DNA of 64,000 bases, taken from assembly GCF_003711805.1 (NCBI RefSeq), contig NZ_QXCP01000002.1:1-64000 (forward strand). Direction: 5' to 3'. Positions within the stretch are counted from its first letter, which is position 1; each line of letters starts with the position of its first letter. Made by a program: the position numbers and the translations under genes. Origin of the DNA: Brachybacterium sp. EE-P12. GTDB taxonomy: Bacteria; Actinomycetota; Actinomycetes; Actinomycetales; Dermabacteraceae. Under the pieces are notes generated by a model that saw nothing but the letters and a program-made list of their open reading frames with translations, made no database searches and was not told the DNA's origin. Positions 33,444 through 53,560 of the stretch are shown in pieces.

Positions 33444-34949
33444 ATGAACGCTCAGAACCCGACTCCGCCGCGCCCGGACGGGAGCCAGAACTGGCCCTCG
33501 GCGCCCACGTACGGCCAGAACCCGCAGGGCGGACTGCCCTTTGAGCCGGCCGCTCCGCCGCGGCAGCCGCAGCGCCCCGTCGCAGCACGCGCGAAGAGCT
33601 TCCCGATCGCCTGGGCGCTCTCGCTGTTCCTCGGGGCACTTGGTGCGGACCGCTTCTACCTCGGCAAGTGGAAGACCGGCCTGCTGAAGCTCGTCACCAC
33701 GGGAGGCTTCTTCGTCTGGTGGCTGATCGACCTGGTGCTGCTGACCACGGGCCAGGTGAAGGATGCCAAGGGCCGCCCGCTGCGCGAGTTCGAGACCATG
33801 AAGTGGCCCTCGCGGGCGATCTCGGCGGTGGTCGCGCTCGGGTTCGTCGGCATGATGGTCCTCGGCGCCACCGCCCCGACGCCTCCGCCCGCCGAGGTGA
33901 CCGCCGCCGAGTCCGCAGCCCTCGAGGAGGCCTCGGTCCCGTCGGAAGAGCCCACCACGGCGGAGCCGACGACGGAGGCGCCGACGACCGAGGCGCCGAC
34001 CAGCGCGGCCCCCACGACCACGGCCGCTCCGACGCCCTCACCGACGCCGGAGCCCGTCGCGGCCGAGGGCACGGCGCTCGCAGTCCTCGCCGGACTTGAC
34101 GAGAAGGGCCGCGCCCCGAAGACCGACTACGACCGCGACCTGTTCGGCTGGCGCGACGACATGGACCGCAACGGCTGCGACACCCGCAACGACATCCTGC
34201 GCCGCGACCTCACCGCGATCACCCTCAAGGGCGGCACGAACGGCTGCGTCGTCCAGCGCGGCACCCTCGACTCCCCGTACAGCGGTGACACCGTCGACTT
34301 CGACCGGGAGAACAGCACGATCGACATCGACCACGTCGTCGCGCTCTCCGACGCCTGGCAGACCGGCGCTGCGAGCTGGGACGAGCAGACCCGCCGCGAG
34401 TTCGCCAACGACCCGCTGAACCTGCTCGCCGTCGAGTCCAGCCTGAACCGGCAGAAGGGCGACGGCGACGCCGCCACCTGGCTCCCACCGCTCAAGGACT
34501 ACCGCTGCGAGTACGTGGCCCGGCAGATCGCCGTGAAGGACAAGTACGACCTGAGGGTCAAGCCCGCCGAGGCCGACGCCATGGAGCGCGTGCTCAGCGA
34601 CTGCGAGGGCTTCCTCGCGATCGAGGACGACGACCAGTGGCCCGCGACCGGCGAGGGCGACGTCGTCGCGACCGAGGAGGAGCCCGCGCCGGAGCCTGAG
34701 CCTGAGCCGGCCCCCGAGCCCGAGCCGGCCCCTGAGCCCGAGCCTGCTCCGGAACCCGAGCCCGAGCCCGCTCCCGCGTACGAGCCTGCCCCGAAGGAGG
34801 AGTCGAACGACAGCGGCTCCGGTGGCGGCAGCGCCTATTACAAGAACTGCGACGCCGCGCGCGCGGCCGGTGCGGCCCCCGTGCACGCCGGCGACCCCGG
34901 CTACAGCAGGAAGCTGGACCGCGACGGCGACGGGGTCGGCTGCGAGTGA
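33444..34949 (+). CDS. TM2 - HNH (GmrSD C-terminal-like) - Excalibur fusion protein
   Basis: A 501-aa membrane-anchored protein. A Pro/Gln-rich leader is followed by a TM2 domain (about residues 52-98: FPIAWALSLFLGALGADRFYLG...TTGGFFVWWLIDLVLL) and a third hydrophobic segment near 122-142. A Thr/Pro-rich linker (about 155-205) leads to an HNH/DUF1524-type nuclease domain with DIDHVVALSDAW near 292-303 and a downstream NLLAVESSLNRQKGD, both GmrSD/HNH marks. An EPEPAPEP repeat spacer (about 415-450) ends in an Excalibur calcium-binding motif (last 35 residues, DRDGDGVGCE). Topology suggests an extracellular Ca-dependent nuclease tethered to the cell. Confidence 0.8.
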   Translation: MNAQNPTPPRPDGSQNWPSAPTYGQNPQGGLPFEPAAPPRQPQRPVAARAKSFPIAWALSLFLGALGADRFYLGKWKTGLLKLVTTGGFFVWWLIDLVLLTTGQVKDAKGRPLREFETMKWPSRAISAVVALGFVGMMVLGATAPTPPPAEVTAAESAALEEASVPSEEPTTAEPTTEAPTTEAPTSAAPTTTAAPTPSPTPEPVAAEGTALAVLAGLDEKGRAPKTDYDRDLFGWRDDMDRNGCDTRNDILRRDLTAITLKGGTNGCVVQRGTLDSPYSGDTVDFDRENSTIDIDHVVALSDAWQTGAASWDEQTRREFANDPLNLLAVESSLNRQKGDGDAATWLPPLKDYRCEYVARQIAVKDKYDLRVKPAEADAMERVLSDCEGFLAIEDDDQWPATGEGDVVATEEEPAPEPEPEPAPEPEPAPEPEPAPEPEPEPAPAYEPAPKEESNDSGSGGGSAYYKNCDAARAAGAAPVHAGDPGYSRKLDRDGDGVGCE

Positions 34950-35043: not shown

Positions 35044-35763
35044 TCAGCAACGCTGCAGCACCAGCACCGCGTCGAGGTGCTCGCCCGCCGAGCCGTCGGG
35101 GGCGGTCGCGGCGCGCGGCCGCTCCTCGGCGAGCTCGACCTCCCACTCCTCAGCCGAGCCGCCGAGCTGCGCAGCCTCGTCCTGCACGGAGACCATCGTC
35201 GCCGGGTGGTCCTTCGCCCAGGACGGAGGCGCGGCGTGGGAGACGATCACGAGATGACCGCCGGACCGGATCGCGGCGGCGGCACGGCGCAGGATCGCGA
35301 TGCGGTCCAGCGCCACGTTCGACTGGAAGAAGCTCGCGGTGACCAGGTCGACCGATGCAGGCTCCGGCTCCCAGGCGTCGAGGTCGACGGCCTCGAAGCT
35401 CGCCCCGTCGAGGCCTCGCGCGGCGGCCTCGTCACGGGCCCGGCCGACGGCGGTGGCGGAGATGTCGAGTCCGAGTGCGGTCCAGCCCTGCTCGGCGAGC
35501 CAGAGCACGTCCCCGCCCTCCCCGCAGCCGAGGTCGATCGCCGTGCCCGGCGCGAGCTCGGCGACGACCGAGGCCATGGTCGCGTTGACCTTCCCCGACC
35601 AGATGCGCTCGCTGCCGGAGTAGCGCTGCTCCCAGTACTCGGAGGGAGTGACCTTCGAATCGATGGATGCGGATGAGCCCCCGCCGACGGACCCGCAGCT
35701 GAGTGGGTGGTACCTGTGGTGGCCCGCAAACAGTAAAGGCGCGGGCTCGTTGTCTCCGGTCAT
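35044..35763 (-). CDS. Class I SAM-dependent methyltransferase
   Basis: A 239-aa protein. After about 35 variable residues, YWEQRYSGSERIWSGKVNATM opens the family, motif I IDLGCGEGGDVLWLAEQGW binds SAM (about residues 75-93), LGLDISATAVGRARDEAA is motif II, and VDLVTASFFQSN motif III. The SAM-binding order resembles tellurite-resistance TehB-like and small-molecule methyltransferases. The start may lie at an internal codon nearer residue 30. It is the last GC-rich gene before the low-GC module. Confidence 0.82.
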   Translation of the reverse strand: MTGDNEPAPLLFAGHHRYHPLSCGSVGGGSSASIDSKVTPSEYWEQRYSGSERIWSGKVNATMASVVAELAPGTAIDLGCGEGGDVLWLAEQGWTALGLDISATAVGRARDEAAARGLDGASFEAVDLDAWEPEPASVDLVTASFFQSNVALDRIAILRRAAAAIRSGGHLVIVSHAAPPSWAKDHPATMVSVQDEAAQLGGSAEEWEVELAEERPRAATAPDGSAGEHLDAVLVLQRC

Positions 35764-36172
35764 GGCTCAAGCCTGGCAGATGGCCCGAGCGAGCGGTAGC
35801 GGCTATGCGCGTGGAGCTGATCCGTTGGCTCCCACCTTGCGCCTCGCGCCAGCGAAAGATCACTTTTCGTGCATACCAGGGCTAGATCGAAGTCTGCAAC
35901 AGCTTGACGCACTAACAACCGGAACATCGATCTCCGTTGCTGAACCATCCGCGGTCACTTCGTCAACGTGGCCCACCGACTACCTTGCGCGTGAACGCCC
36001 GCACCGCACCCTCCCTCCTCTGATCTCAACCCCGGAGGGAGCCGCGCCGCAGCATGGCGGAACGTAAAGAATCGCCTCAGTGACTCCCGCAAGCATGGCA
36101 CTCATGGATAGGCTAGGCATGCGAGAGAGTCATGTTCTGGACAAGTACTGACAGCACAGAAACGGGCAACAA
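35764..36172. other. Left junction of low-GC module
   Basis: The 409-bp gap shifts visibly from GC-rich to about 55% GC. No tRNA, integrase or repeat of the right junction was found. An open frame on the plus strand (35648-36067) crosses the methyltransferase antisense and is not credible. Confidence 0.5.
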
Positions 36173-37033
36173 ATGGTCAAAAAAGCGTTCGAGGTCCCAG
36201 TCGAAATTGACCTTCTAGGGTTATCGATAGTCGGATGGGAGGGAGAAGCTCGCCTAAGGGTAACCGCCGATGACTGGGAGACCGAGTCAAGTAGTAGCCC
36301 GAAGATTGCGTACAGTTACGCCCTCTCAGGTGCGTTTCATTTTAATGAAGAGGACTGGAATGTAAGATACCGACGTTCGCGCGAAGATAGCTACGTCCCT
36401 TCACTCCTCCTTGAAATCCACTGCCCCAGCCTGGGCGAGAGCTTCTATGAAGAGATCGCGACGGACGAGTTAAAGAAGGTCAGGAAACGCCCCCTTAGGG
36501 TATCCAAGCAAGGCCGCCTTGGTTACACTCTGCCCTCCGTGGATCCTAGCGAGTTCTCTGCAAGGATAACCGCCTTTGACGGTCTCGATGCGGAGACTCG
36601 AGAGTTCTGCGTGGCGAGAAAAGAGATACCCGTGGAGACCGTGAGTGAGCTTGACGGCGATGCATTTGCCCCAGTGGTCGATGTACGAGCGTATCTTGTC
36701 GATGAATATGCTTGCTTTGTGGCTTCCGGGTCTATTCGCATAGGCTCAAGGGAGGCCTTGGCAGAGAAAGCTGCGGAAGATGATTGGTTTGACCCCAGTG
36801 ACGACGAAGAAGCGGAACTTCCCTTGCCGGACATCGAGGTGGAATGGGTCGACTCAACTGGATTTGTCCTTGAAGAGGGGGGTGCCTACTTGGGATGGCA
36901 GTACCCATACCGGCGTTCGACCCCCATAGCTCAGCGTCCTCCACGCTTCTTCGTCAAGCTAGAAACCAGGCTCGATGACCTTTCTGGCATCCCTACCAGG
37001 GCGGTGGCACGCTTCGTGGAGGGAGAAGATTGA
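36173..37033 (+). CDS. Unknown protein coupled to a sacsin-like ATPase
   Basis: A 286-aa acidic protein I do not recognise. The N-terminal half looks beta-rich (FEVPVEIDLLGLSIVGWEGEARLRVTADDW; YALSGAFHFNEEDWNVRY), as in a beta-sandwich or a phage/virion-like sensor. The C-terminal third is acidic (DDWFDPSDDEEAELPLPDIEVEW). No TM segment or signal peptide. GC content is near 50-55%, far below the 70% of the flanks. The stop overlaps the ATPase start (TTGA), so the two proteins are made together. A target-recognition or regulatory partner is likely, by context only. Confidence 0.72.
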   Translation: MVKKAFEVPVEIDLLGLSIVGWEGEARLRVTADDWETESSSSPKIAYSYALSGAFHFNEEDWNVRYRRSREDSYVPSLLLEIHCPSLGESFYEEIATDELKKVRKRPLRVSKQGRLGYTLPSVDPSEFSARITAFDGLDAETREFCVARKEIPVETVSELDGDAFAPVVDVRAYLVDEYACFVASGSIRIGSREALAEKAAEDDWFDPSDDEEAELPLPDIEVEWVDSTGFVLEEGGAYLGWQYPYRRSTPIAQRPPRFFVKLETRLDDLSGIPTRAVARFVEGED

Positions 37034-38838
37034 ATCTCGCAAAAAGGACTTCATCGCTCGCAGACGCGCTTGTCCGTGAGTATTTCCAAGCTCCCAACCT
37101 GTTTGGTGAGATTGCGCGTATAGAGACAATGCTCGCAGATACTTATCGTAACAGGGTCCAGTACGAGTTGCTACAGAACTCTGATGATGCTGGCTCGACA
37201 ACTGTTCACATTTCTCGCCCGAGACTCGGAATGCTCCGATGGGAAAATAATGGGAGGGATATGACTGAGCAGGATGTGGAAGCGTTGTGCAGGTCTGCAA
37301 CTTCGGCCAAATCCCGGGGGGAAGATATTGGTTACCGTGGCATTGGATTCAAGTCGATTGCGGCGATTGCATCAAAGATTGACGTGGAGAGTGGAGGAGT
37401 TAAGTTCACTTTCGACCGTCGATCGACAGTGAAGCTCCTCGGTGTCGACACGCAAGCCTCTGTCCCACTAGTGAGAATTCCCACAGATGTAGCCACGTCC
37501 AACTTTAGAGGCGCAAGGTTCTCGATTGAGCTTTCGGTGGCCGAGCCAGATCTTCGGATCGACCCGACAGCACTTCTATTCCTGCGAAGCGTCGAGCGCG
37601 TTGAATCGAGCCTTGAGGAGACTAGCTCGATAGTCATGACTCGCACCTCGGGCAGGGTCAAGCTCAGCGACGACGGAGCTTCGGGTGAATTTGCCCTGCT
37701 CGAGGCAACCGGGGCGCAGTTGGCCATTCCGTTAGATCCGTGGGCCCGAAAAATTGCAGGACCAGCTGGGCGGCTGGCGTGTTTTCTCCCGCTCGATGAA
37801 TCCATGGGGTTGCCGATCGTGTTGTCTGGAGACATAGCCACTGACCCGTCGCGCACCAATGCCATCCTTGATGATGCGTCGACCAAGAAAGTAATTGCGG
37901 CGGGTGCTGAATTGTTCGCGGAAGTCATACGCAATCCGTACCACCCTATTTTTGACGTCGCGTGGCAACTGCTACTGGAAGCGCCTGATCCGCGTGCTGC
38001 TCTTTTGGGTTCAATGGAGAGTGTGGCTTCAATCTTTTTCCGCTACCTGCGAGAGAATCTATCCAATGTGCCCATTCCATTCGCAATCGCGCCGGTCAGC
38101 TTAGTGGATGCTGAAACAGAAGTGCTGTTTCCTGGTGGCGCGCCGAATGTGTTATATGCGTCTCAGAATCGAGTCGCCGTCCGAGCACTGAAGGCCGCTC
38201 TTAATCTCCCCGAGCTGAGCCTGGAGGATGTGGCTGGCCGCCTGAATCCGGAGGCGATGCCGCTCGACAGGAGATCATATTTTGCGAAGCTCCTCGCTGA
38301 GAATGCTCGCTTGCGCGGCCGCCAAATGACCTCAATTGAACTTGCCTTCGGTGCTCACGGGGAAAGTCTGGACGTGGAGAACAATGTGCATATGTCTGTC
38401 AAGTCGGCAACTGTGAATGCCAGAACGTCGGCTGACGTAGATGCGACTGGAGGTCTGCCCTATTTTGTCGAACGCTGGCGAGCTATCGAAGTTGCTGTCG
38501 TCGAGTGGTTGAACTCCCGCGGATGGAGTTTAACGGATGTCTCGAAGCAAAACTTGGGATATGACGCAGAGGGTCTAGATGGGGCTGGTCGAGCAGTATG
38601 CCTTGAAATTAAGAAAACGGACGGGCTGGATTCGTCGTTCGCTCTAACGACAAACGAATGGGCGTTGGCTCAGTCTGGGACTAAGTCGTTCCTTTTGGCG
38701 GTCGTGATTGGAGATGGCAGGCGGTCGCGCATGGCATTGCTTGATCCGATTGGTGCGAAAATGGAGCCTATTCGAGTGGCGCGCCAGTGGGAGTGGCGAT
38801 TCGAAAACTGGTCAGAGCATGCTCTCTGGGTTCAGTGA
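37030..38838 (+). CDS. Sacsin/HSP90-type ATPase with C-terminal NO VEIN (DUF3883) domain
   Basis: A 602-aa protein started by TTG. The N-terminus is a GHKL-type ATPase of the sacsin group: YELLQNSDDAGST (Glu46, Asn50, Asp53) binds Mg-ATP, MLRWENNG is the second strand motif, and DIGYRGIGFKS (about residues 99-109) is the lid motif. The middle (about 200-480) has no recognised domain. About 495-575 is DUF3883-like: GYDAEGLDGAGRAVCLEIKKTDGLDSSFALTTNEWALA, with LEIKK as a PD-(D/E)xK-like core strand. Nucleic-acid targeting with ATP-driven conformational change is a fair inference. Low GC and the coupling with the preceding gene mark it as an acquired two-gene module. Confidence 0.8.
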   Translation: MNLAKRTSSLADALVREYFQAPNLFGEIARIETMLADTYRNRVQYELLQNSDDAGSTTVHISRPRLGMLRWENNGRDMTEQDVEALCRSATSAKSRGEDIGYRGIGFKSIAAIASKIDVESGGVKFTFDRRSTVKLLGVDTQASVPLVRIPTDVATSNFRGARFSIELSVAEPDLRIDPTALLFLRSVERVESSLEETSSIVMTRTSGRVKLSDDGASGEFALLEATGAQLAIPLDPWARKIAGPAGRLACFLPLDESMGLPIVLSGDIATDPSRTNAILDDASTKKVIAAGAELFAEVIRNPYHPIFDVAWQLLLEAPDPRAALLGSMESVASIFFRYLRENLSNVPIPFAIAPVSLVDAETEVLFPGGAPNVLYASQNRVAVRALKAALNLPELSLEDVAGRLNPEAMPLDRRSYFAKLLAENARLRGRQMTSIELAFGAHGESLDVENNVHMSVKSATVNARTSADVDATGGLPYFVERWRAIEVAVVEWLNSRGWSLTDVSKQNLGYDAEGLDGAGRAVCLEIKKTDGLDSSFALTTNEWALAQSGTKSFLLAVVIGDGRRSRMALLDPIGAKMEPIRVARQWEWRFENWSEHALWVQ

Positions 38839-38844
38839 GTCCTG

Positions 38845-40155
38845 ATGTCGAACATGCCCCGAGGCCGCGCTGAGAATGTCAATGCCTCGACCCCCGCCTC
38901 CCGGAACCGGGTCGTCGACTTCCTGCGCGCCGCCGCGATCACGGTGGTGGTTCTCGGTCACTGGACGATCATCGCCGTCGACCCCGACGGCGGGATCCTC
39001 CCGCACGGCGTCCTCGATGGCGCGAGGTGGACCCATCCGCTGACCTGGCTGTTCCAGGTCATGCCGATCTTCTTCCTCGTCGGCGGGTACTCCAACGGCC
39101 TTTCCTGGCGCTCCGCGAGGCGCAAGGAGACCGGCTACGCCGAGTGGCTGCGCACCAGGCTCCGACGCCTCGGCATCCCGCTGATCCCGCTGCTGCTCGC
39201 CTGGCTCGTGATCGGGGTTGTGGCGGTTGCACTCGGCGCCCCGCATGCGACGGTCCAGCTCGCCTCGCAGATGGCGCTGATCCCCACCTGGTTCCTCGCC
39301 GCGTACCTGATGGTGATCCTCGTGGGGCCACCCTGCCTGTGGCTGTGGGAGCGCTTCGGGTGGTGGTCGATCGTGGGCGGCATCGCGCTCGCCGGGATCG
39401 TCGACGCGATCAGCATCGCCGCCGACCAGCCGCTGCTGGGCTACCCGAACTATCTGCTCGTCTGGGCGGCGTTCCATCAGGTCGGCTACGCCTGGCTCGA
39501 TGGCCGGCTCTCGGGCATCGGCCGACGGATGCTGTTGGCAGCGATCGGCCTGGTCGGCCTGCTGCTGCTCGTGCTGGCGGGCCCGTATCCGGTCTCGATG
39601 ATCACCGCCGGGGGAGACGCGATCTCCAACTCGAGCCCCACCCGCGTGACGATGGCGTTCCTCGGCATGCTCCAGGCCGGGCTCGTGCTCTCCCTCGAGA
39701 AGCCGCTCGAGGCGCTGCTCCGCCGGCCGAGGCTGTGGTTCGTGACCGTGCTCGTGAACCAGCGGATCATGACCTGGTTCCTGTGGCACCTCACCGTCAT
39801 GGTGGGGCTCGCGCACCTGCTGCTCGCGCTTGATGCGTGGGTGCTGCTGCCCGAGCCGCTGACGGGGCTGTGGTGGGCGACGCGGCCGTTGTGGGCGCTC
39901 GTACTGCTGGCGCTGACGGGCCTCCTGGTGCTGGTGATGGGCCGCTTCGAGGAACCGCGGGCCGACGACCGCCCGGCCCCGCCCGTGTGGAAGCCGATCG
40001 CCGCGGCGGTGTGCGTCATAGCGGGACTCGCCGTGATGGCGTCCGTTGGCGTCGTGGGGGAGAGCGGCGTGACCTGGTGGTGGCCGCTCGTGCCGGTCGT
40101 GGGGTTGTGGGGCTTCGGGGTGTTGGGCCTGCGGCGTACGCCGAACCGCGCCTGA
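38845..40155 (+). CDS. Acyltransferase 3-family membrane protein
   Basis: A 436-aa polytopic enzyme with about ten TM helices. FLRAAAITVVVLGHWTII (about residues 26-43) carries the conserved catalytic-type His, and MPIFFLVGGYSNGLSW and TRLRRLGIPLIPLLLAW follow. Family members O-acylate cell-surface sugars, peptidoglycan or antibiotics. It begins seven bases after the low-GC ATPase stop but has backbone GC content, so the insertion boundary lies just before it. Confidence 0.85.
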   Translation: MSNMPRGRAENVNASTPASRNRVVDFLRAAAITVVVLGHWTIIAVDPDGGILPHGVLDGARWTHPLTWLFQVMPIFFLVGGYSNGLSWRSARRKETGYAEWLRTRLRRLGIPLIPLLLAWLVIGVVAVALGAPHATVQLASQMALIPTWFLAAYLMVILVGPPCLWLWERFGWWSIVGGIALAGIVDAISIAADQPLLGYPNYLLVWAAFHQVGYAWLDGRLSGIGRRMLLAAIGLVGLLLLVLAGPYPVSMITAGGDAISNSSPTRVTMAFLGMLQAGLVLSLEKPLEALLRRPRLWFVTVLVNQRIMTWFLWHLTVMVGLAHLLLALDAWVLLPEPLTGLWWATRPLWALVLLALTGLLVLVMGRFEEPRADDRPAPPVWKPIAAAVCVIAGLAVMASVGVVGESGVTWWWPLVPVVGLWGFGVLGLRRTPNRA

Positions 40156-40464: not shown

Positions 40465-41205
40465 TCAGCTCGGGAAATCCCCCGCAGAGCGGAAGATTCT
40501 TGCTGTCGCGTGCTCGAGCGCGGAGTCGTCGAGAGACGAGAGATCGGTGACCCGCAGCTCGTACTGGATCGCCTTGAGCCCGTTCCGGACGAGCTCCCGT
40601 CGGCTCTGGTGACCGGCAAGACCGCGAACCTGCTCGGCGATGGCCTGGGCGACGCGATGATCCGCGGAGAGATTGCGATCGACGAGGCCGACGAGGTCAT
40701 CCTCGTAGAGGGGCAGCTCCGGATCGTCGAGGAGGTCGCCGAGGATCCACGAGCGCAAGTACGCGCGATAGAACACGTTCCTGCGGCCGGACAGGTATCT
40801 GTCGCGGGGAAGCTTGCCGGAGCGGTCTGGGCCGAATCGACGCACTGCGAGATCGGGGAGCACGAGGATCGTGAGGTAGGGCCAGATCTCCGGGTCGGAC
40901 GCCTGTCCTCTCCCGTCCACCTCGAACCAGTCGACGAGGAACCTTCCCGTGATCGCGTCGAACTTCCGATCGGCATCGCGGCCACGTTCGGGGACGGAGG
41001 AGAGCGCCTTCGTCAGCGAGCTGTGAAGCTCTCGCAGGCGTGACACGCCGACGGGTGCGCCTCCGAAGCTGGTGAACCTGGTCCTCGGGTCGAGAGTCCC
41101 ATCGGGGAGAGAGCGGGGAGGCTCGCCCTGCTTCAGCCTCTCCTCGAGCTCGCTCAGCGCCGTGGCGGCGTCCTCGCGCGTCAGCTGGGGATAGATGCGG
41201 CTCAT
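40465..41205 (-). CDS. Unknown protein of the Z1/Dcm operon
   Basis: A 246-aa protein, mainly helical and charged, with no domain I can name with confidence; a DUF6339-type family is possible from memory. MSRIYPQLTREDAATALSELEERLKQGE opens it, and YLSGRRNVFYRAYLRSWIL (about residues 128-146) stands out as an Arg/aromatic segment. Starts inside the stop of the upstream gene (ATGA), so it is an integral part of the defence operon. Confidence 0.65.
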   Translation of the reverse strand: MSRIYPQLTREDAATALSELEERLKQGEPPRSLPDGTLDPRTRFTSFGGAPVGVSRLRELHSSLTKALSSVPERGRDADRKFDAITGRFLVDWFEVDGRGQASDPEIWPYLTILVLPDLAVRRFGPDRSGKLPRDRYLSGRRNVFYRAYLRSWILGDLLDDPELPLYEDDLVGLVDRNLSADHRVAQAIAEQVRGLAGHQSRRELVRNGLKAIQYELRVTDLSSLDDSALEHATARIFRSAGDFPS

Positions 41206-42104
41206 GCCTCTTCTCCTTCCGCGCCGAAACGGAGCGCTTCGCGAGAACGAGCGATGAGGTTCGCAGGCTCCTCCCGAGCCATCCTCATGGCCTCGCTGAG
41301 GGGCAGTCCGATGCTCTGCGCCAGCAGCAGGCCCAATGCCGCCAGGGTCTCGTGGTCATGCTCCGCGAGGTCCTCCATCTGCCGGGGTGTCATCGTGTCT
41401 CTCCAGTTCGCGAGCTTGTGGAACACGACGAGGTGGATGTCGCTCTGGATGAGCGAGTAGATGTCCTCAGCCGCGGTGCCTTCCAGGATCTCCGCCGCGA
41501 GATGGGAGTCCACGTTCACATACAGGCGGATCGCGGTGCTCACCCTCCACGCAGGCTCGGCCTCTGGGGTGGCCTCGACGAGCCACGGCACATCACGGCG
41601 ACTGGTCCGTGCGAAGGAGAGCGCCGTCGTCGGGAACGCCGCATCGTCGCTCTCGAGCCCGAGTCGCAGCGGCCTGGGCAGCTGCCAGAGCTTCGCGCCG
41701 AGATGCACGGCGTTCCTCGGGTCGGTGCTGCCGGTCCGCCCGGGACCGACTATCCAGATATCCGCGAAGACCTCGACGGCGATGACCCCGCCGTCGATCT
41801 CCACGAGGGCCTCGGCGCTCCAGACGCCGTCCTGCTCGGTGAATCGAGCCGTCTTGCGCCAGGTAGCGCGCGCCGGGAGGCACGTGGCGATCCCGACCAT
41901 CGTGATCGGCTCGTCGGAGGGGATTCCGGTCTGCGCCCAGAAGTCCGGGGCGAGCTCGGCACGGCAGCGGAGGACGATGCGCTGTCCCGGCTCCCAGACA
42001 TCGGCGAGCTCCTCCACAGCGGTCGCTGGTTCTAGCACGTCGATCGACGTGCTGACCGAAGCGCTGAACGGGGCGAGGAAGGGCTTCGACTCAAGGACGG
42101 CCAT
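41202..42104 (-). CDS. Unknown protein of the Z1/Dcm operon
   Basis: A 300-aa protein with a beta-rich first two thirds (STSIDVLEPATAVEELADVWEPGQRIVLRCRAEL; WSAEALVEIDGGVIAVEVFADIWI) and a helical last third (RQMEDLAEHDHETLAALGLLLAQSIGLPLSEAMRMA). No motif or TM segment recognised. It overlaps the GHKL ATPase stop by 14 bp and its own stop overlaps the next start. Position beside a GHKL ATPase parallels the unknown gene at 36173, but I see no sequence similarity between them. Confidence 0.7.
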   Translation of the reverse strand: MAVLESKPFLAPFSASVSTSIDVLEPATAVEELADVWEPGQRIVLRCRAELAPDFWAQTGIPSDEPITMVGIATCLPARATWRKTARFTEQDGVWSAEALVEIDGGVIAVEVFADIWIVGPGRTGSTDPRNAVHLGAKLWQLPRPLRLGLESDDAAFPTTALSFARTSRRDVPWLVEATPEAEPAWRVSTAIRLYVNVDSHLAAEILEGTAAEDIYSLIQSDIHLVVFHKLANWRDTMTPRQMEDLAEHDHETLAALGLLLAQSIGLPLSEAMRMAREEPANLIARSREALRFGAEGEEA

Positions 42105-43995
42105 CGGGCGCTCCTGCCGTGATCTCGACCCTCAGGGCGCGCCGAGGTGCGCCGAGGAAGCGGACGCCGGCCTCCTCGCCGGTCCGTACGACTGCCATGT
42201 CCTTCCCCTCCGGGGCGGCGTGCTGCCATCTGATCGCCAGGTCCTGCGGGGGGACCGGTTCGTGCAGGCCCTCGTCTCCCAGCAGGCTGACGCTCAGGCG
42301 GACTCGTCCGACAGGTCCATCGCCGGCGACGATGAATCGGACCTCCTGCTCCTGTGTCCCATCTGCCGCAGTGCGTACAAGCCGAGGAGCCCCGGCTTCG
42401 ACCGTCCAGCGAGCTCGCCGTTCGGTGCGTCGCCGTCCTGTTCCGGACCGACCGGAGTCGTCGTAAACCTGCGGTGCCGGACCGGGGAGGATGGCGCCGA
42501 GCCGGCGAGACAGAGCTCCCGTGGAACGGAAGAACTTCGGGGAAGTCGGGACCTGCTCCTCGACCGCGGGATGGATCGCCTCGATGATCCTGTCCCGGAC
42601 CCGGGTCTTGGTGTGGCGGATGATCTTGGAGGACTCGCTGCTCGAGCCCTCCGTCACCCAGTTGTCGTGCGCAGGGGGCTCTGCTTCGGCGTAGTACTCG
42701 TCGAAGTCATCAGCCGACTTGAAGACGGCGAGCCAGTCCGTGCCCGCAGGAGCTTCGCGCCGGACCCAGTCCACCGTCGTTACGACGAGCTCGGCCTGCC
42801 CGCGCATCAGCGCGATGCGCAGCATGCGCGATTCTTCCTCCCTGGCGGGATCGAGATCGTCGGAGTCCAGATACGGCTCGGCGGCGGGGATCCGGCGGAC
42901 GAGGGCGAGGTGGCCGATGACTTTCCGGTACCTCAGGATCTCGATCACCTCGACAGCTACACCCTGAGGAGTCCTGATCTCCGAAGAGTCCGAACGGGCG
43001 GCACGGATCGCGTTCAGACCGGAGCCCCAGAGGAGCAGCGAGCCGCCCTCGTCGATGCCGAGGTCGACGGGTCGGGAGTTCACCGTGAGCTCGAGAGCCA
43101 TGGGTGACTCCACGTCCCCGGGCGCGGTGATCATCTTCGGCCAGAGGTTCGCGCGGATCGCGTGTCGTGCGCGGCGTTCGAAGTCCTGCTCCATCTCCTC
43201 CGCATCGCTGCGCAGCCTGTGGAGCGGCTCGACGGAGGCGTCCTCGGAGTCCTCCTCGTCTGCGATGAGCGGATCGAGGATGAGGAGGGACGTCCCCGTC
43301 TCTCCCGGTTCGAATCCTCTCTCGAAGAGCCTCGCCCCGAGCGCCGCCGCATCGTCTCCCACGACGGGGAGCACTGACTCCCCGTCCTCGGAGCGCTGGC
43401 CCCACCAGTGGCGCCCTGTGAACTGGACGCCCTTCTCCTGGTAGGACTCGCCGAACGCCGAGACGATGAAACGATCCTCGATCTCGCCCTCAGGATTGCG
43501 GCAGCGCGTCCAGTAGATGACTGTGCCGATGCCGCTGTACGCGAACGCCGCGGTCTTGCCGAATCCGTATGTCCCTCCCGTGGTCCCGTTGTTGTGGGAG
43601 ACGCCGAACTTGAGGATGAGGTCCTGGAAGCGAGCTGAGCGGCCCTTGCCGGCCGGCGACAGGTCGGACGGGCCGTCGAGCCCGCGGGTGCCTCTGTCGT
43701 AGATCTCCAGCATGCGGAAGTTCGCGTGGCGACGCATGGAGGCGAGGTCGCCGTGACGTCCTTCGGACAGGAGATCCGCGAGGTCATCGCGCAGGCGGTA
43801 GTCGGTGCGACGGAGGCTGATCCCGAAGAGAGGGCGGCCGCGGTCGTTCCGAGCGTCCCAGCTGTTCTGCGCTGTCTCGCGGATGAGCACGGCCAGACGG
43901 GAGAGCTCGGTCTTCCCCAGGAGCCGATCTCCGCCGGAGGCGTCCATGTCGCCGGGGGAGAAGCGCTTGGGGAACCACTGGAGGGTCTTGATCAT
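42091..43995 (-). CDS. MutL/MORC-type GHKL ATPase of a restriction-modification operon
   Basis: A 634-aa protein. N-box RETAQNSWDAR (Glu40, Asn44, Asp47), DRGT at 100-103, and lid motif GTYGFGKTAAF near 141-151 make a complete GHKL ATP site. The rest includes a transducer-like region and a C-terminal beta domain (about 540-634). This is the ATPase class that comparative genomics (Aravind group, MutL homologues and MORC origins) links to Dcm, Vsr, Z1 and DUF4420 genes. It is expected to act as an ATP-dependent clamp or loop-forming subunit. AGGACCTC lies just before the ATG. Confidence 0.85.
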   Translation of the reverse strand: MIKTLQWFPKRFSPGDMDASGGDRLLGKTELSRLAVLIRETAQNSWDARNDRGRPLFGISLRRTDYRLRDDLADLLSEGRHGDLASMRRHANFRMLEIYDRGTRGLDGPSDLSPAGKGRSARFQDLILKFGVSHNNGTTGGTYGFGKTAAFAYSGIGTVIYWTRCRNPEGEIEDRFIVSAFGESYQEKGVQFTGRHWWGQRSEDGESVLPVVGDDAAALGARLFERGFEPGETGTSLLILDPLIADEEDSEDASVEPLHRLRSDAEEMEQDFERRARHAIRANLWPKMITAPGDVESPMALELTVNSRPVDLGIDEGGSLLLWGSGLNAIRAARSDSSEIRTPQGVAVEVIEILRYRKVIGHLALVRRIPAAEPYLDSDDLDPAREEESRMLRIALMRGQAELVVTTVDWVRREAPAGTDWLAVFKSADDFDEYYAEAEPPAHDNWVTEGSSSESSKIIRHTKTRVRDRIIEAIHPAVEEQVPTSPKFFRSTGALSRRLGAILPGPAPQVYDDSGRSGTGRRRTERRARWTVEAGAPRLVRTAADGTQEQEVRFIVAGDGPVGRVRLSVSLLGDEGLHEPVPPQDLAIRWQHAAPEGKDMAVVRTGEEAGVRFLGAPRRALRVEITAGAPDGRP

Positions 43996-44005
43996 GAGGT
44001 CCTGT

Positions 44006-44983
44006 TCAGAGGTTCTCGAGGACGGCCTCGAGCTGGTCCGGATCGAGCTGGCCGGGGCAGGCGTCGAGGGAAAGCTGGTAGGAGATGTTCGAGACGCCGC
44101 GCAGGGTCTCCGGGCTGAGCCTCGACGAGCGGAGGCCGGGGAAGTCGTCGGTCACCTCATGGAGCCGGATCTCCTCGATGGCGAAGCGTCGCTGACGGTC
44201 CTCGATGCCGGGGACATCGTCTCCCAGAGTTCTCAGGACGTCCTCATAGGGGACTCCGTGCTCGGCGATCCGTGCGGTGAGCTCCTCCAGCGACTCGCCC
44301 TCGGCGCTGTCGGCGATGCGGAAGGCCACGAGATGGAGGGCGCCGCCGGAGGGAGGATCGAGCTGATGCTCGCCGTGGATCGTCACTGCAGGGCTGCCGT
44401 CGCCGACGAGGGTCTTCACCTCGAGGGCGTTGGTGCGTGAGAAGTCGTGGATCGCTCCCTGTCGGCCTTTCCATGACGAGAGCGCAGCCTGGGGGTCGCG
44501 CGCGGCGAGACGCTCGAGCACTGTCAGCTCTCCGAAGAGCCCGACGAGTCGGTTCCTGTCCATCGCGGTGCGCTCTCGTGCGAGCGCGGCGCGCCACGAC
44601 TCGAGGACCTCCGCCAGCTCGTCGATGCTGGGCCGGCCGCTTTCATCCGAGCGGTCGAGCATCTCGCCGATCAGGGAGAGGAACGTCCGCAGCAGTCGGG
44701 CATCGGTGCAGACGACGTCGAGCCAGTCGCGTCGCCCTCCGTCCTCGTTCGTCGCGATCCAGGCGGCGCGGAGAAGGCGCCCGAGCGGCACGTCGAACCT
44801 CTCGCGGTCCTCCGGAAGCCGTGTCATGAGATGGATGAGACCGACGTGATCCTTCACGAGCAGAGCGTCCTGGAGCCGCCAGGGGCTTCCGAGGACCGTG
44901 GACACCGACTCGCCCTCCAGCACTCGCTCGGCACGGAGCTGCTCGTAGGCCTTCTGGACGCGGGTATGGCCCCTGCTCATCAT
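44006..44983 (-). CDS. PD-(D/E)XK motif protein (DUF4420)
   Basis: A 325-aa predicted nuclease. The fold core reads GLFGELTVLERL (Glu, about residue 150), then SSWKGRQGAIHDFSRTNALEVKTL (Asp-Phe and Glu-Val-Lys, about 168-190), a typical PD-(D/E)xK arrangement, followed by TIHGEHQLDP. In the MORC-type systems this gene supplies the restriction nuclease. It starts within the Z1 stop region (ATGATGA). Two adjacent Met codons could be the start. Confidence 0.85.
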   Translation of the reverse strand: MMSRGHTRVQKAYEQLRAERVLEGESVSTVLGSPWRLQDALLVKDHVGLIHLMTRLPEDRERFDVPLGRLLRAAWIATNEDGGRRDWLDVVCTDARLLRTFLSLIGEMLDRSDESGRPSIDELAEVLESWRAALARERTAMDRNRLVGLFGELTVLERLAARDPQAALSSWKGRQGAIHDFSRTNALEVKTLVGDGSPAVTIHGEHQLDPPSGGALHLVAFRIADSAEGESLEELTARIAEHGVPYEDVLRTLGDDVPGIEDRQRRFAIEEIRLHEVTDDFPGLRSSRLSPETLRGVSNISYQLSLDACPGQLDPDQLEAVLENL

Positions 44984-47694
44984 GACTCCTCGTTCCTGAC
45001 GTAGTCGCCCTCCTCGTCGCGTGCGACGGCGGCCTCCGCCTCTGCGTCCTGCTCCTCCAGTTCGACGGACCAGTACTCCTCGGGGTCCTCGTCCTCGGCG
45101 TGGGGGAAGACGACGCCGAGACCGATGATCGTCCCGTCGGCATCCATGCTGGTCCTCGTCTGCGAGTCCTTCGCGGGCTCCGACTGGCCGTCGACGGCGT
45201 AGAGGAGGATCGCTCCCTGGTCGGGGCGGATCAGGCTGCGAGCCGCCTTCACGGCGCTGACCTTCCGCTTGTCGACGCCGTCGAGGATCTTGAGATCCTC
45301 TTCATCGAGCTCGCCGTTGTCGGCGAGGATCCGAAGGTCGAGCGTGTAGTCGTCGCCGGCCATCAGCGCTCGGATGTTGACGATCTCGGCGTCATCCGGG
45401 AGGGCGACGCCGAGCGTGCTCGCCGACCAGTTCTTCGACTTGAGCGGGGCTCGGCGCGACGCCTGCACGGTCACGCCGGGTGCGTACTCATGGTCGCTCT
45501 TCGACGAGCCGGAGACGAGCACGAGGTTCCACTCCGCGTCGGCGCCGTGACGCCGGAGCCAGCTGGCCATGCCCTCGGGCTGCAGCCAGCGGTCGGTCGG
45601 GGACACCCAGTACTGCTCGAGGAAGGCGAGCAGATCCGTGTTCTTGAGGCCCTGGTACATCTGGGTGGAGCTGCGCCGGGCGGAGTGGGCCCCGCGTGCA
45701 AGGACGGGACGACCGATCTCGATCGCGCGGCGGACGAGCCCCGACGAGGCCTCGAGCGCGCGCTCCCGTCCCGCAGCGGACTTGTCGAGATAGATGGTCT
45801 GACGCCTCGTCCCTCCGAGCCCGGCGCGGGCGAGCCTCGCCGCTTCCATCTTCCCCTTGCTGGTGATCTCGAGCCGGCCAGGATGGCTCTTGACCTTTAT
45901 CGCGAACTCCCGGGGTGTGCGCCCCTCCTTCTCCATCTCGGCGACCTCGTCGCGGAGCTGCTTCTCGACCGTCGCGAGGTGCGCGTATTCGTCGAGCAGT
46001 CCGGGGCCCATCCAGACGCGGACGAGATCGGCATAGCCGGGGCGGAAGCCGAACCAGCGGCCCATCTGCAGCAGCGTGTCGTAGGTGTTGCTCGATCGCA
46101 GGAAGTACGAGACGACGAGTCCTTCGAGCGTCAGGCCGCGGGAGAGGGTGCCGCCGCCGACGGCGATCACCGTCTGCGTGGTGTCCGGGTCGTAGACGAG
46201 GCGATCGTCGGACGCCCCGTTGTCGATCTTGACGACGACACCTTCGAGGACCTTCTTCGCGGCGGGCCACAGGGTCGCCCACCCGGGCATCTCCTCGGAG
46301 CCGCGCAGCGCCACCGCACGGTCCTTCTCCGCCTCGTAGACCGAGCGGAACTCCGCCTCCTGGTCGTCGATGTCCAGGGCGACGTCGGAGATGAAGCCGG
46401 AGATGACCTCCTTGGTCTGCTGGTGGACTCGGACGAGCTGGGAGGTGTGGACCAGCATCGAGGAGTCCCGGGACTTCGAGGTGCGGAGCTCCCGGATCGC
46501 GGTGGCGAGGATGAACCAGCGGATCGCGGCGGCGAGCGTCGGCGTCATCTCGGGGGAGAACTCGTCGATCTTCTTCGGCCGTGGTGTGAAGATCTGGGCT
46601 TCGTGCTCCGGCACCTCGTGGGCGAGCTGATGGATCACCTCGTCCTCTCCGCTGTCGACGGTCTGATCGACGTCGAAGAAGAGCTCGGAGCCCATGTAGC
46701 TGTCCGGCTTCGGCAGCACGGAGACGAAGTCCTCCGGATAGAGGTCGCCGTCATCAGAGGGATCGATGAAGACGTTCGCGAAGGGGGTCGCCGTGTACGC
46801 GACATAGGTGCCGGTGGGGACTGCGGCCCAGAGCGCTCGGATCCGCTTGTTGATGGTGGAGACGAGATCCTTCGCGCCCAGCGTGTTCGGAGTCGCCTGG
46901 TCGGACTCGTCGTCGATGATCATGACGGGGCGGCGGTTCAGGGTCGCTTCCGGGATCGACTTGAGGAACTTCGTGACATTCGCGAGCCTCATCTCGTGCT
47001 TCTTGACGACCATGAGGGCGACGTTGCTCGTCGAGGAGAGAACCCCGGGGCTGCTGTCCTTGCCCATGTCTGCGTTCCGGCTGGTGAAGCGCTGCCAGGC
47101 GAGGCCTGAGTGCTCCTCGACGATGTCGATACCCAGGTCCTTCTGGAGACGGAGCTGCGTCTGGACGCGGAGGTTCGTGTACATGCCGGCGAGGACGATG
47201 ATGATCCGGTAGCCCTCGTCGACCGCCTTGGCGATGAGACCGGTGAAGTTCGCGGTCTTGCCCGACTGGACGTAGCCGATGACGAGACCCTTGCGGCGGT
47301 CGCCGACGGCCCTGGGGTTGGCGCACTGGCGCAGGATGCGGTCGGTGGAGCGGTGGATCGACTCCACAGCATCGGTGGGCAGACCGCCCTGCTCGAGGCG
47401 CCGGCGGTATGCGGGCCATTCACCGATCCGCGTCTTCGCCCCGCTGTACCACTCGGGTCGGCCGCCGTCCTTCCGGATCATGTCACCGTCCTTGATGCGC
47501 TTGACGGTGTTCTCCTGCTCGTCGACGTATGCCTCAAGCGCCTCTCTGAAGCCGGGGAAGATGCCTTCGACAATCGCCACGACCTCGCGGTGAGCCGCGC
47601 CCTGATCCGTCTGTCCGCTGCGCCCTGCGAGGATCCCCTCGTACGCGCCGAGCGCGTCCCGGAATCGATCATCGTCCAGCAGGTTCTCCGCCAT
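44980..47694 (-). CDS. Z1-domain helicase-like ATPase
   Basis: A 904-aa protein. Walker A GYVQSGKT is at 140-147, Walker B-like IIDDESDQ at 260-266, and the Z1 signature (GGTLSRGLTLEGL ... SNTYDTLLQMGRWFGFRPGY, about residues 515-550) is clear. Z1 proteins are superfamily II-like and are expected to move or remodel DNA for the partner nuclease. The start at 47694 (MAENLLDDD) is preferred: AGGGGGAG lies upstream, and an alternative long N-terminus is low-complexity. The largest gene of the operon. Confidence 0.9.
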   Translation of the reverse strand: MAENLLDDDRFRDALGAYEGILAGRSGQTDQGAAHREVVAIVEGIFPGFREALEAYVDEQENTVKRIKDGDMIRKDGGRPEWYSGAKTRIGEWPAYRRRLEQGGLPTDAVESIHRSTDRILRQCANPRAVGDRRKGLVIGYVQSGKTANFTGLIAKAVDEGYRIIIVLAGMYTNLRVQTQLRLQKDLGIDIVEEHSGLAWQRFTSRNADMGKDSSPGVLSSTSNVALMVVKKHEMRLANVTKFLKSIPEATLNRRPVMIIDDESDQATPNTLGAKDLVSTINKRIRALWAAVPTGTYVAYTATPFANVFIDPSDDGDLYPEDFVSVLPKPDSYMGSELFFDVDQTVDSGEDEVIHQLAHEVPEHEAQIFTPRPKKIDEFSPEMTPTLAAAIRWFILATAIRELRTSKSRDSSMLVHTSQLVRVHQQTKEVISGFISDVALDIDDQEAEFRSVYEAEKDRAVALRGSEEMPGWATLWPAAKKVLEGVVVKIDNGASDDRLVYDPDTTQTVIAVGGGTLSRGLTLEGLVVSYFLRSSNTYDTLLQMGRWFGFRPGYADLVRVWMGPGLLDEYAHLATVEKQLRDEVAEMEKEGRTPREFAIKVKSHPGRLEITSKGKMEAARLARAGLGGTRRQTIYLDKSAAGRERALEASSGLVRRAIEIGRPVLARGAHSARRSSTQMYQGLKNTDLLAFLEQYWVSPTDRWLQPEGMASWLRRHGADAEWNLVLVSGSSKSDHEYAPGVTVQASRRAPLKSKNWSASTLGVALPDDAEIVNIRALMAGDDYTLDLRILADNGELDEEDLKILDGVDKRKVSAVKAARSLIRPDQGAILLYAVDGQSEPAKDSQTRTSMDADGTIIGLGVVFPHAEDEDPEEYWSVELEEQDAEAEAAVARDEEGDYVRNEES

Positions 47695-47735
47695 TCCGTT
47701 CTCCCCCTGATGTCGTTCGTGGTGACGGGAACAGG

Positions 47736-48194
47736 CTATCTGCGGTGACTGACATCCGGCGGAAGAATCCGATTCCGTGGACGCACTGCGTCGATGATCC
47801 GGGTCGCGACGTCCTCGGGATCTTCGTGCTCCCAGAAGCGGAGCACCCGCCATCCCGCGTCGCTCAGCCGTGCGGTCGAGGTGCGGTCGCGCTCGATGTT
47901 CCGTGCGATCTTCGGCCCCCAGTAGTCGGCATTGCTCTTCGGGGCGATGAAGTGCTGAGGACAGCCGTGCCAGAAGCAGCCGTCGATGAAGACGACAACC
48001 TTCACGCGCGTGAAGACGATGTCCGCCCGTCGCCGTCGATCAGCAGCGTCGGCCGGGAAGTCCACCCGGTAGCGCAGCCCGGCGGCGTGGATCCTGCGCC
48101 GCACGGCGAGCTCGGGAGAAGTGTCCTTCCGTCTGTTGGCGAGCATCGTCCGGCGCGCGTTCTCGCTGCTCGGACGTGGTGGGCGACTTTCCAT
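47736..48194 (-). CDS. vsr: Vsr-family very short patch repair endonuclease
   Basis: A 152-aa nickase that cuts 5' of T in T:G mismatches arising by deamination of methylated C, thereby protecting Dcm sites from mutation. Motifs are ADIVF (Asp58, catalytic metal), FIDGCFWHGCPQH (69-81) and DYWGPKIARNIERD (about 90-103). The start at 48194 gives the usual length and has GGAGA eight bases upstream. It follows the Dcm-like gene by 37 bp. Often such genes are only repair functions, but here it sits between methylase and Z1. Confidence 0.92.
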   Translation of the reverse strand: MESRPPRPSSENARRTMLANRRKDTSPELAVRRRIHAAGLRYRVDFPADAADRRRRADIVFTRVKVVVFIDGCFWHGCPQHFIAPKSNADYWGPKIARNIERDRTSTARLSDAGWRVLRFWEHEDPEDVATRIIDAVRPRNRILPPDVSHRR

Positions 48195-48231
48195 CAGGTC
48201 TGTCTCCGGGGTCCTGAGGTCAGTGCGCAGG

Positions 48232-51737: not shown

Positions 51738-52013
51738 ATGCCTGGCGACGCTCCCCAAGCGACGACCTCGGATCTGATCCTCTCCACCTTGCTCGACGAC
51801 GAGCAGCGCGGGGCCCGCGAGTTCGCAGGCATCATGATCCCCGCCTGGTGGACGCGGGACCAGGTCGCCGCTCAGCTCCTCGCCGCGCTCCCGTCGATGG
51901 AGCCGGCCGGCGACGACCCCGAATGCCGGGACCACCTGCGCGAGCTCTACGAGCGCCACCGTGCGGCGGGCACGCTTCCGCTCACCGATGACGAGGGCGG
52001 CGCCTGGGGCTGA
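51738..52013 (+). CDS. Small hypothetical protein
   Basis: A 91-aa acidic, helical protein (LILSTLLDDEQRGAREFAGIMIPAWWTRDQVAAQLLAALPSMEPAGDDPECRDHLRELYERHRAAGTLPLTDDEGGAWG). GGAG lies directly against the ATG, a poor spacing, so the start is uncertain. No family recognised. The Trp-rich AWWTR segment is notable. Next downstream is the permease gene fragment. Confidence 0.45.
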   Translation: MPGDAPQATTSDLILSTLLDDEQRGAREFAGIMIPAWWTRDQVAAQLLAALPSMEPAGDDPECRDHLRELYERHRAAGTLPLTDDEGGAWG

Positions 52014-52053
52014 GCCCGGAAGGCCGCCCGTCGGCCGTGCGCGTCGGTGTCAC

Positions 52054-52303
52054 CGCCCGGCCCGCACCCCGAGCACCCACGCCCCCACCAGCGCCACGAC
52101 GATCCCGTTCAGCGGCGCGATCCCGATGCCGTACTCGTTCGACACCCACGCCACCACGCACCCGGCCGCGTACGGCACGAGCGCCTGCCAGCGCACCTTC
52201 TCGGTCAGCGTCGACAGCGGCGGCTGCCCGCTCCGCCAGCGGGCGATCCAGTCGCCGATGAGCACGCCGCCGACCGGCGGGATGAGGATGCCGATCAGGC
52301 TGA
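52054..52303 (-). pseudogene. 3'-end fragment of a cytosine permease gene (direct repeat of 53747-53996)
   Basis: This 250-bp segment matches the end of the intact permease gene at 53737-55032 at 244 of 250 positions. The peptide SLIGILIPPVGGVLIGDWIARW...ALVGAWVLGVRAGR is identical, so all six differences (all C/G changes) are silent. The fragment stops one codon earlier after RAGR. It lacks a 5' part, and the upstream sequence is unrelated. It marks the far side of a 1.4-kb insertion. Confidence 0.9.
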
Positions 52304-52344
52304 TGCTCCGCGCACGACGCTGAAGTATTATCCTGTAACCCTTG

Positions 52345-52902: not shown

Positions 52903-52903
52903 G

Positions 52904-53392: not shown

Positions 53393-53531
53393 TACTCCAC
53401 CTCCTTTGAATTAAGAGGGAACGGGACCGACCATGGTGGCGATCTAGGCGAATTGCCAGCACTCTCAGTCTCCGATTAGAGGCTGGCAGTTCTGTGTAGA
53501 AAGTTCGCCTGGGTTGACATCGTAGCAGTGC

Positions 53532-53560
53532 TTGACAGACTGTGCGGGATGCTGTATACG
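53532..53560 (+). promoter_or_regulatory. Sigma-70-type promoter
   Basis: TTGACA (53532-53537) and TATACG (53555-53560) are separated by exactly 17 bp. A second TTGACA lies 18 bp upstream (53514). It faces the cytosine permease gene end, in antisense, so it does not serve an obvious protein gene. Confidence 0.55.

What the first reader, a model, noticed from the sequence alone, without database searches (positions are those of the whole stretch)
36173..38838. Acquired two-gene module: unknown protein + sacsin/HSP90-type ATPase with NO VEIN (DUF3883) domain
Seen in the sequence: an unrecognised 286-aa acidic protein is translationally coupled (TTGA overlap) to a 602-aa GHKL/sacsin-like ATPase with intact ATP motifs and a C-terminal DUF3883-like domain containing a LEIKK strand. 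The pair has about 50-55% GC inside a 70% GC context, is sharply bounded, and lies next to a restriction-type island. Inference: this is a candidate two-component defence system, with the first protein as sensor or regulator and the DUF3883 part as nuclease. I do not recognise it as a named system.
Basis: partly seen in the sequence, partly recalled or inferred. Interest (0 to 1): 0.78.

Follow-up and report, generated by a model that had tools for sequence, protein, structure and literature searches.

The report
Mobile two-gene ATPase–nuclease module
Two tightly linked bacterial genes, one for a predicted ATP-driven DNA-cutting enzyme and one for a small companion protein of unknown kind, recur together in very different bacteria and look like an unnamed defence system against invading DNA, though that role has not been tested.

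Summary
In detail: a 286-aa acidic ORF overlaps by 4 nt a 602-aa ORF with a sacsin-type GHKL ATPase and a C-terminal NOV_C/DUF3883 domain, at 54.5% GC in a 70.5% GC window. The pair is absent from the other 37 genomes of the genus. Of 8 congeners checked at the site, 7 have a short gap and 1 has unrelated genes. The pairing is conserved: a small partner of one of four sequence types adjoins the ATPase in 48 of 55 related loci; the same profiles hit nothing in 25 more distant loci. In the 6 closest orthologues the partner is a P0001 homologue. Partner type follows the ATPase tree (4 changes versus 20.8 shuffled). The NOV_C domain models as a PD-(D/E)XK nuclease with a conserved E-D-ExK site. 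P0001 models as two Ig-like sandwiches of no known family. Best reading: an ATP-gated nuclease controlled by a co-inherited non-enzymatic partner, analogous to VcSduA (GHKL-Shedu), most likely anti-phage. Defence is inferred, not shown. I found no name or description for the pair in the libraries and papers I could search.

The parts
36173..37033 (+). P0001, 286-aa acidic partner protein; AlphaFold2 model with two Ig-like beta-sandwich halves (about 21-135 and 160-286); type A partner family
   Evidence: no Pfam, NCBIfam or PADLOC match
37030..38838 (+). P0002, 602-aa GHKL (sacsin-type) ATPase with C-terminal PD-(D/E)XK-type domain
37165..37353 (+). GHKL ATP-binding motif region, residues 46-108 (E46..N50..D52D53; N73..G75; G101..G104xGFK108)
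   Evidence: E46, N50, D52, D53, N73, G75, G101, G104, G106, F107, K108 in 52 of 52 aligned relatives
38443..38835 (+). NOV_C/DUF3883 domain (residues 472-602) with E487, D512, E526-x-K528 and T540-x-N542-E543
37030..37033 (+). 4-nt overlap TTGA joining the two genes (translational coupling inferred)
35647..38840 (.). Interval without BLAST similarity to congeners, between a minus-strand ORF (35044-35763) and the acyltransferase start at 38845; by eye likeness continues to about 35.79 kb, so the inserted block is about 35.8-38.84 kb

Best explanation
The pair is a mobile two-component system that most likely restricts foreign (phage or plasmid) DNA. P0002 should form a GHKL-type dimer that closes on ATP and thereby controls its own C-terminal PD-(D/E)XK nuclease. 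P0001, a non-enzymatic tandem Ig-like protein encoded just upstream and probably on the same message, should bind P0002 and act as the recognition or gating subunit that keeps the nuclease off until an infection cue appears. Shown here: the conserved gene pair, intact ATP and nuclease motifs, a nuclease-type fold in the model, partner and ATPase distances that rise and fall together, and absence of the pair from the rest of the genus. Inferred: the complex, the gating, the cue, DNA as substrate, and the anti-phage outcome.
For: Pairing: 48 of 55 related loci (L033-L087) have an A-, B-, C- or D-type partner next to the ATPase gene, 41 upstream (gaps -50 to +69 nt by my ORF calls, 13 of them a 4-nt overlap) and 7 only downstream; in 12 loci a partner was found by a profile not trained on that locus; no hit in 25 of 25 more distant loci. 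All 6 close actinobacterial orthologues (L033-L038) have a P0001 homologue directly upstream, in L037 split over two frames; the apparently broken copy L003 keeps a homologue of the C-terminal half. Partner label on the ATPase tree (A, B, C, none typed): 4 changes, shuffled mean 20.8, 0 of 200 shuffles as low; type A clade 100/100. Distance correlation partner versus ATPase: r 0.889 in 24 type B pairs (0 of 5000 permutations as high), 0.951 in 6 type A pairs (15 of 5000). Motifs: E46, N50, D53, K108 in 52 of 52; E487 51, D512 51, E526 51, K528 52 of 52. NOV_C domain alone: pLDDT 88.4, pTM 0.82, core order helix-three strands-(short strand)-helix-strand; Foldseek best E 7.2e-05 (Hjc resolvase, 2wiz), VIA Z 12.5 (rmsd 2.5, 109 aligned, Hjc 2wcw), 10.8 (rmsd 3.6, 119, SPARDA), 9.9 (Eco15I, NhoI). 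Mobility: no pair in 37 of 37 other genomes of the genus; a full-length relative on a plasmid typed as mobilizable. Analogue: VcSduA, a GHKL ATPase fused to a PD-(D/E)xK nuclease, is a validated anti-phage protein (PMC12137116, passages).
Against: No functional data. Flanking genes of relatives are mixed, including aconitase and methionine synthase genes, and no PADLOC family is matched by more than 2 of the 148 flanking proteins scanned (of 362 called). No relative was found in phages or viral contigs, which fits host defence but proves nothing. P0001's fold matches are weak (best VIA Z 5.5, best Foldseek E 0.0055 with low probability), so a sensor role rests on analogy. Profile comparison gives no support for common descent of type A and type B partners. 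Seven of 55 loci have no detected adjacent partner. Most partner profiles were trained on the loci in which they score. The distance correlations would also arise from simple co-inheritance.
Confidence: 0.6

Rival explanations
1. Abortive-infection or toxin-antitoxin-like use: the nuclease attacks the host's own DNA (or RNA) when released, and P0001 is chiefly the inhibitor that holds P0002 silent.
For: Small acidic partner, encoded first, overlapping and tightly co-inherited; a partner that only inhibits could be exchanged a few times, as the tree shows.
Against: The partner is only downstream in 7 of 48 loci with an adjacent partner, and in L053, L055 and L076 ORFs of 805, 902 and 607 aa of unknown relation stand in its place, which would be unusual for a plain antitoxin. 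By analogy only: in WonAB, another two-gene ATPase-nuclease system, simple sequestration was ruled out (PMC12137116, passage).
Confidence: 0.2
2. A DNA-repair or recombination module: a MutL/resolvase-like ATPase-nuclease acting on structured or damaged DNA, with P0001 as a scaffold.
For: Besides sacsin, the ATPase domain's weak sequence matches are to MutL, and the nuclease model's closest structures are Holliday-junction resolvases.
Against: Very sparse distribution (P0001 in 1 of 38 genus, 1 of 297 order and 1 of 396 phylum genomes), presence as an inserted block, low GC.
Confidence: 0.1
3. Part of the nearby Z1/DUF4420/methylase (Mza-like) restriction island rather than a system of its own.
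For: The island begins about 2.4 kb away and has its own GHKL-like ORF (42091-43995; GHKL reading by eye).
Against: An acyltransferase gene that keeps its place in 8 of 8 congener loci separates them, and the island is on the other strand. Z1 has full-length relatives in two congeners, G686 and G689, and neither has the pair. The 10 flanking proteins scanned around the six closest orthologues contain no Z1, DUF4420 or methylase.
Confidence: 0.05

Closest known systems
VcSduA, Shedu type I-D (paraMORC3)
   Same: N-terminal GHKL ATPase and C-terminal PD-(D/E)xK nuclease in one chain, with conserved motifs in both; validated as anti-phage (PMC12137116, passages).
   Different: The nuclease is DUF4263 there and NOV_C/DUF3883 here; P0002 has no DUF4263 match. 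VcSduA is described as a single protein; here a separate partner gene is conserved.
Tiamat (TmtA)
   Same: Sacsin-type N-terminal ATPase; a PADLOC TmtA profile matches P0002 at 9.3e-28. That TmtA is the Tiamat protein is recalled.
   Different: The best stretch covers profile positions 14-351 of 1538; TmtA profiles are 1302-1782 positions long, P0002 is 602 aa. Tiamat as a single-gene system is recalled.
MORC/paraMORC GHKL proteins of restriction systems
   Same: GHKL ATPase module linked to RE-fold nucleases (PMC2292703, passages).
   Different: Those families mostly neighbour helicases, methylases and endonucleases; here no third gene recurs in more than 3 of the 148 flanking proteins scanned, by the listed families. 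The word sacsin does not occur in that paper.
DUF3883 as a restriction-endonuclease domain
   Same: Called 'a novel REase domain' fused to an SNF2 helicase in R-M operons (PMC3710099, table passage) and presumed Type II REase in archaea (PMC10609329, one passage).
   Different: Here it is fused to a GHKL ATPase and paired with a small protein.
WonAB
   Same: Two-gene ATPase plus PD-(D/E)xK nuclease defence system (PMC12137116, passages).
   Different: WonA is an ABC ATPase and the nuclease is the other subunit; here ATPase and nuclease are one chain and the other subunit is a beta-sandwich protein.

Membership tests
GHKL / sacsin-type ATPase | ATP-site motifs and a profile match above cut-off | tested here: met
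   NF047352 61 bits versus cut-off 50; HATPase_c_3 26.4 versus 25; motif residues in 52 of 52 relatives. SACS (28.4 versus 32.8) and HATPase_c (18 versus 26.4) are below cut-off.
PD-(D/E)XK nuclease superfamily | E-D-ExK residues and core fold | tested here: met
   NOV_C 37 bits versus 22.1; residues in 51-52 of 52; model matches with Z up to 12.5
PD-(D/E)XK nuclease superfamily | DNA cleavage | not testable with these tools
   needs biochemistry
Shedu (type I-D, VcSduA) | DUF4263 nuclease domain | tested here: not met
   No DUF4263 match among Pfam matches up to E 1; NOV_C instead
Tiamat | match over the long TmtA chain (profiles of 1302-1782 positions) | tested here: not met
   P0002 is 602 aa; best stretch covers positions 14-351 of 1538 (two stretches passed, only the best is shown)
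Classical restriction-modification system | cognate DNA methylase next to the nuclease | tested here: inconclusive
   No methylase among the 25 Pfam families listed for 148 flanking proteins of relatives, but 101 further families were not listed; in the window the nearest methylase found is about 9.4 kb away
Mza-like system | belongs to the Z1/DUF4420 operon | tested here: not met
   Opposite strand and separated by an acyltransferase; P0001 has no PADLOC match and P0002 only TmtA, PDC-S36 and HmaA
Anti-phage defence system | protection against phage that depends on the genes | not testable with these tools
   needs plaque assays

The most novel reading that the evidence does not exclude
An unnamed, widespread family of ATP-gated nuclease defence systems in which one constant GHKL-PD-(D/E)XK engine is coupled to interchangeable small subunits (tandem Ig-like in the branch of this window, a short beta-type domain or an apparently helical protein elsewhere) that decide what is sensed, with rare exchanges of the subunit marking major branches of the engine's tree.
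Probability: 0.45. Interest if true: 0.78.

Novelty: new variant of a known kind. Interest (0 to 1): 0.62.

Why it matters
If confirmed, it adds a two-gene, sacsin-type branch to GHKL-nuclease immunity. Its partners are undescribed as far as I could test: P0001 has no match in Pfam, NCBIfam or PADLOC, and the other partners scanned against Pfam and NCBIfam have none above cut-off except an added DUF2510 domain in L033. The ATPase is in 9 phyla on the tree, 8 of them with a typed partner, and several relatives come from named strains such as Streptomyces anulatus JCM 4721, Rhodococcus koreensis DSM 44498 and Marinobacter pelagius 114J, so it is directly testable. It would also give a compact bacterial setting in which to ask how a sacsin-type ATPase couples ATP to an effector.

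Tried and rejected
P0001 as a known or housekeeping family: rejected. Common descent of type A and type B partners: not supported by hhalign (best E 0.067), so I do not claim it. Tandem duplication inside P0001 by sequence: not supported; only the model suggests two like halves. Relation of P0001 to the 300-aa protein of the Z1 island (41202-42104): none found; of P0002 to the island's GHKL-like ORF: none by BLASTP. Boundary repeats or transposon ends: none convincing. Defence-island enrichment of relatives: not demonstrated; 170 PADLOC families matched but each in at most 2 of 148 proteins, with no control set. PDB sequence search with the nuclease profile: nothing better than E 0.46; with P0002 only MutL-type rows at E 0.11 or worse. 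Phages and viral contigs: nothing. A4 was built and never searched.

Limits of the control: the 25 distant loci (L088-L112) match P0002 mostly in the ATPase part only, but L093 matches to residue 559, and some are short (L094 5050, L098 3888, L104 6754 bases), so a partner outside the held DNA could be missed.

Rows dropped: of 55 family loci, L042 and L070 (no ORF called) and L046, L080, L083 (short ORF) are not in the 52-row alignment and tree. A5 has 46 of those 52 rows (L032, L055, L057, L066, L069, L084 left out). The type B correlation uses 24 of 26 type B proteins, the type A one 6. Tree labels: L064, L066, L069 were called C because of a downstream C-type gene although a D-type gene is upstream; L065 (C hit 1.3 kb away) and L067 (250 bp away) were called C on weak placement and count as not adjacent. 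The 148 flanking proteins are up to 3 per locus, under 1000 aa, of 362 called, and include some partner-like ORFs.

Papers: PMC12137116 (outline and passages), PMC2292703, PMC3710099 and PMC10609329 (passages only); all others seen only in listings. 'Not described in print' rests on searches of an open-licence library without preprints.
Full report
What is there. The window holds ORF P0001 (36173-37033, 286 aa) and ORF P0002 (37030-38838, 602 aa) on the plus strand, overlapping in TTGA, with a purine-rich stretch before the TTG start. P0001 is acidic, pI 4.52. The pair's GC is 0.545; 2666-bp windows of the 64 kb average 0.705 (sd 0.044), and the lowest window not overlapping the pair is 0.62.

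Acquisition. P0001 has no relative in the 37 other genomes of the genus that are held. P0002 has only partial matches in 3 of them, inside open frames of about 1200-1700 codons. The acyltransferase to the right (38845-40155) is matched in 28 of 38 genomes of the genus, own included, some only distantly. I took the locus from 8 of them with close matches. In all 8, BLAST similarity runs up to 35646 (35657 in one) and resumes at 38837-38884. In 7 the matched flanks are about 220-310 bp apart. In the eighth (G146) they are about 2.3 kb apart, at 73% GC, and hold a membrane-transporter-like ORF and a MerR-like ORF, judged by eye. By eye the window keeps some likeness up to about 35.79 kb, so the inserted block is about 3 kb. 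It ends directly before the acyltransferase start, so it has displaced that gene's usual upstream region. P0001 was also found in only 1 of 297 order genomes and, with a profile, 1 of 396 phylum genomes, each time the window's own. P0002 was matched in 30 of 297 order genomes, but beyond its own genome only L003 was matched along most of its length; the rest are partial matches, nearly all to the ATPase part.

P0002. Pfam gives NOV_C at 3.7e-09 and HATPase_c_3 at 7.9e-06, both above cut-off; SACS is below its cut-off. NCBIfam gives P_loop_sacsin above cut-off and weak MutL rows. PADLOC gives TmtA over part of the profile and a marginal PDC-S36 match to NOV_C. In 52 aligned relatives the residues E46, N50, D52, D53, N73, G75, G101, G104, G106, F107 and K108 are invariant; E487, D512 and E526 are in 51, and K528, T540 and E543 in 52. 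Modelled alone with 46 sequences, the NOV_C domain has pLDDT 88.4 and pTM 0.82. Its best structural matches are PD-(D/E)XK-type nucleases: Hjc resolvases (Z up to 12.5), SPARDA (10.8), Eco15I and NhoI (9.9), DpnI (9.5); 54 of 1000 chains aligned have Z 8 or more, and lower rows include splicing endonucleases. The nuclease assignment is strong at the level of fold and residues; cleavage is untested.

P0001. There is no match in Pfam, NCBIfam or PADLOC, in plasmids or in PDB sequences. The model from 7 sequences (pLDDT 81.7, pTM 0.72) has two beta-sandwich halves. The best matches are mostly Ig-like domains of glycoside hydrolases (domain naming recalled) with Z at most 5.5, a level that may reflect only a common arrangement; no Foldseek match reaches 0.001. 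I read it as tandem Ig-like, without a functional call.

The pair elsewhere. I treat 55 (L033-L087) as family members and 25 (L088-L112), which match mainly in the ATPase part, as a comparison set. Six actinobacterial loci (Rhodococcus, Mycobacterium, Streptomyces, Nocardia, Actinomadura, Tomitella) match at 41-45%. All six have a P0001 homologue directly upstream, in L037 split over two frames. L003, an apparently broken copy in an incomplete genome of the same order, keeps a homologue of the C-terminal half (E 0.018 in a small database, supported by position). Outside this clade the small neighbour belongs to other sequence families: B (about 110 aa, or about 240 aa with an extra N-terminal part), C (about 210 aa and longer, apparently helical by eye) and D (about 310-340 aa). 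Profiles of the four types find an adjacent partner in 48 of 55 loci, 41 upstream and 7 only downstream, and no hit in the 25 comparison loci. For most loci the profile was trained on that very protein; 12 loci have a partner found without such training (three of these, L064, L066 and L069, are near-copies of one another in the ATPase). The likeness of neighbours between loci was first seen by all-against-all BLASTP. Without an adjacent hit: L053, L055, L065, L067, L070, L076, L083. L053, L055 and L076 have upstream ORFs of 805, 902 and 607 aa instead.

Co-inheritance. On the ATPase tree (52 rows) the labels A, B, C and 'none typed' need 4 changes, against a mean of 20.8 in shuffles; the type A clade is supported 100/100. 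Dietzia (Actinomycetota) sits among Pseudomonadota with a type B partner, as expected if both genes move together. Partner and ATPase distances correlate, r 0.889 (24 pairs) and 0.951 (6 pairs); plain co-inheritance would give this too. One full-length relative, with a small gene overlapping it by 8 bp, lies on a Planococcus plasmid typed as mobilizable. No relative was found in phages or viral contigs.

Neighbourhood. In the window a Z1/DUF4420/C5-methylase island follows beyond the acyltransferase. Its Z1 gene has full-length relatives in only 2 of the 37 other genomes and a partial one in a third, and neither of the two full-length carriers has the pair. Among 148 flanking proteins of relatives no listed family is matched by more than 3, and both defence or mobile families (dGTPase-like, Fic, phage integrase) and housekeeping ones occur. 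So the two genes look like the whole unit, but a general defence-island location is not shown.

Mechanism. In VcSduA the authors hypothesise that a GHKL ATPase domain controls a C-terminal PD-(D/E)xK nuclease, and the protein protects against phage (PMC12137116, passages). By analogy I propose ATP-dependent dimer closure that controls nuclease action, with P0001 as the recognition or gating subunit. The motifs, the modelled fold and the pairing are shown; the complex, gating, substrate and defence are inferred.

Comparison and novelty. It is not Shedu (no DUF4263), not Tiamat (length and coverage) and not part of the Mza-like operon. DUF3883 was called an REase domain before (PMC3710099; PMC10609329). 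I found no paper describing a sacsin-type ATPase-DUF3883 protein with a small partner in searches. I rate it a new variant of a known kind.

Noticed in passing
window 41202-49605: Accessory island with a Z1 protein (MzaC-like), DUF4420 protein (MzaD-like), a GHKL-like ORF with a partial PDC-M33A match, a 300-aa protein without family and a C5 methylase; Z1 has full-length relatives in 2 of 37 other genomes of the genus.
   Followed up: partly
window 33444-34949: 501-aa protein joining a TM2 domain, a GmrSD_C domain and a C-terminal Excalibur domain; looks like a membrane-tethered nuclease.
   Followed up: no
L036 7950-8858 (minus): A second P0001-type partner, convergent with the ATPase gene, besides the usual upstream one in Nocardia vaccinii.
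   Followed up: no
L033 4730-5983: The partner ORF of Rhodococcus koreensis carries an N-terminal DUF2510 domain and a proline-rich stretch, which may place it elsewhere in the cell.
   Followed up: no
L064, L066, L069: These loci have an acidic D-type protein upstream and a C-type protein downstream of the ATPase, a possible three-gene form.
   Followed up: no
L132 (G146), about 2451-4724: The same intergenic site carries a transporter-like and a MerR-like ORF instead of the pair, so the site may be a small insertion hot spot.
   Followed up: partly
window 52001-54000: Second GC dip (down to 0.555) with a 197-aa ORF without Pfam or PADLOC match.
   Followed up: no
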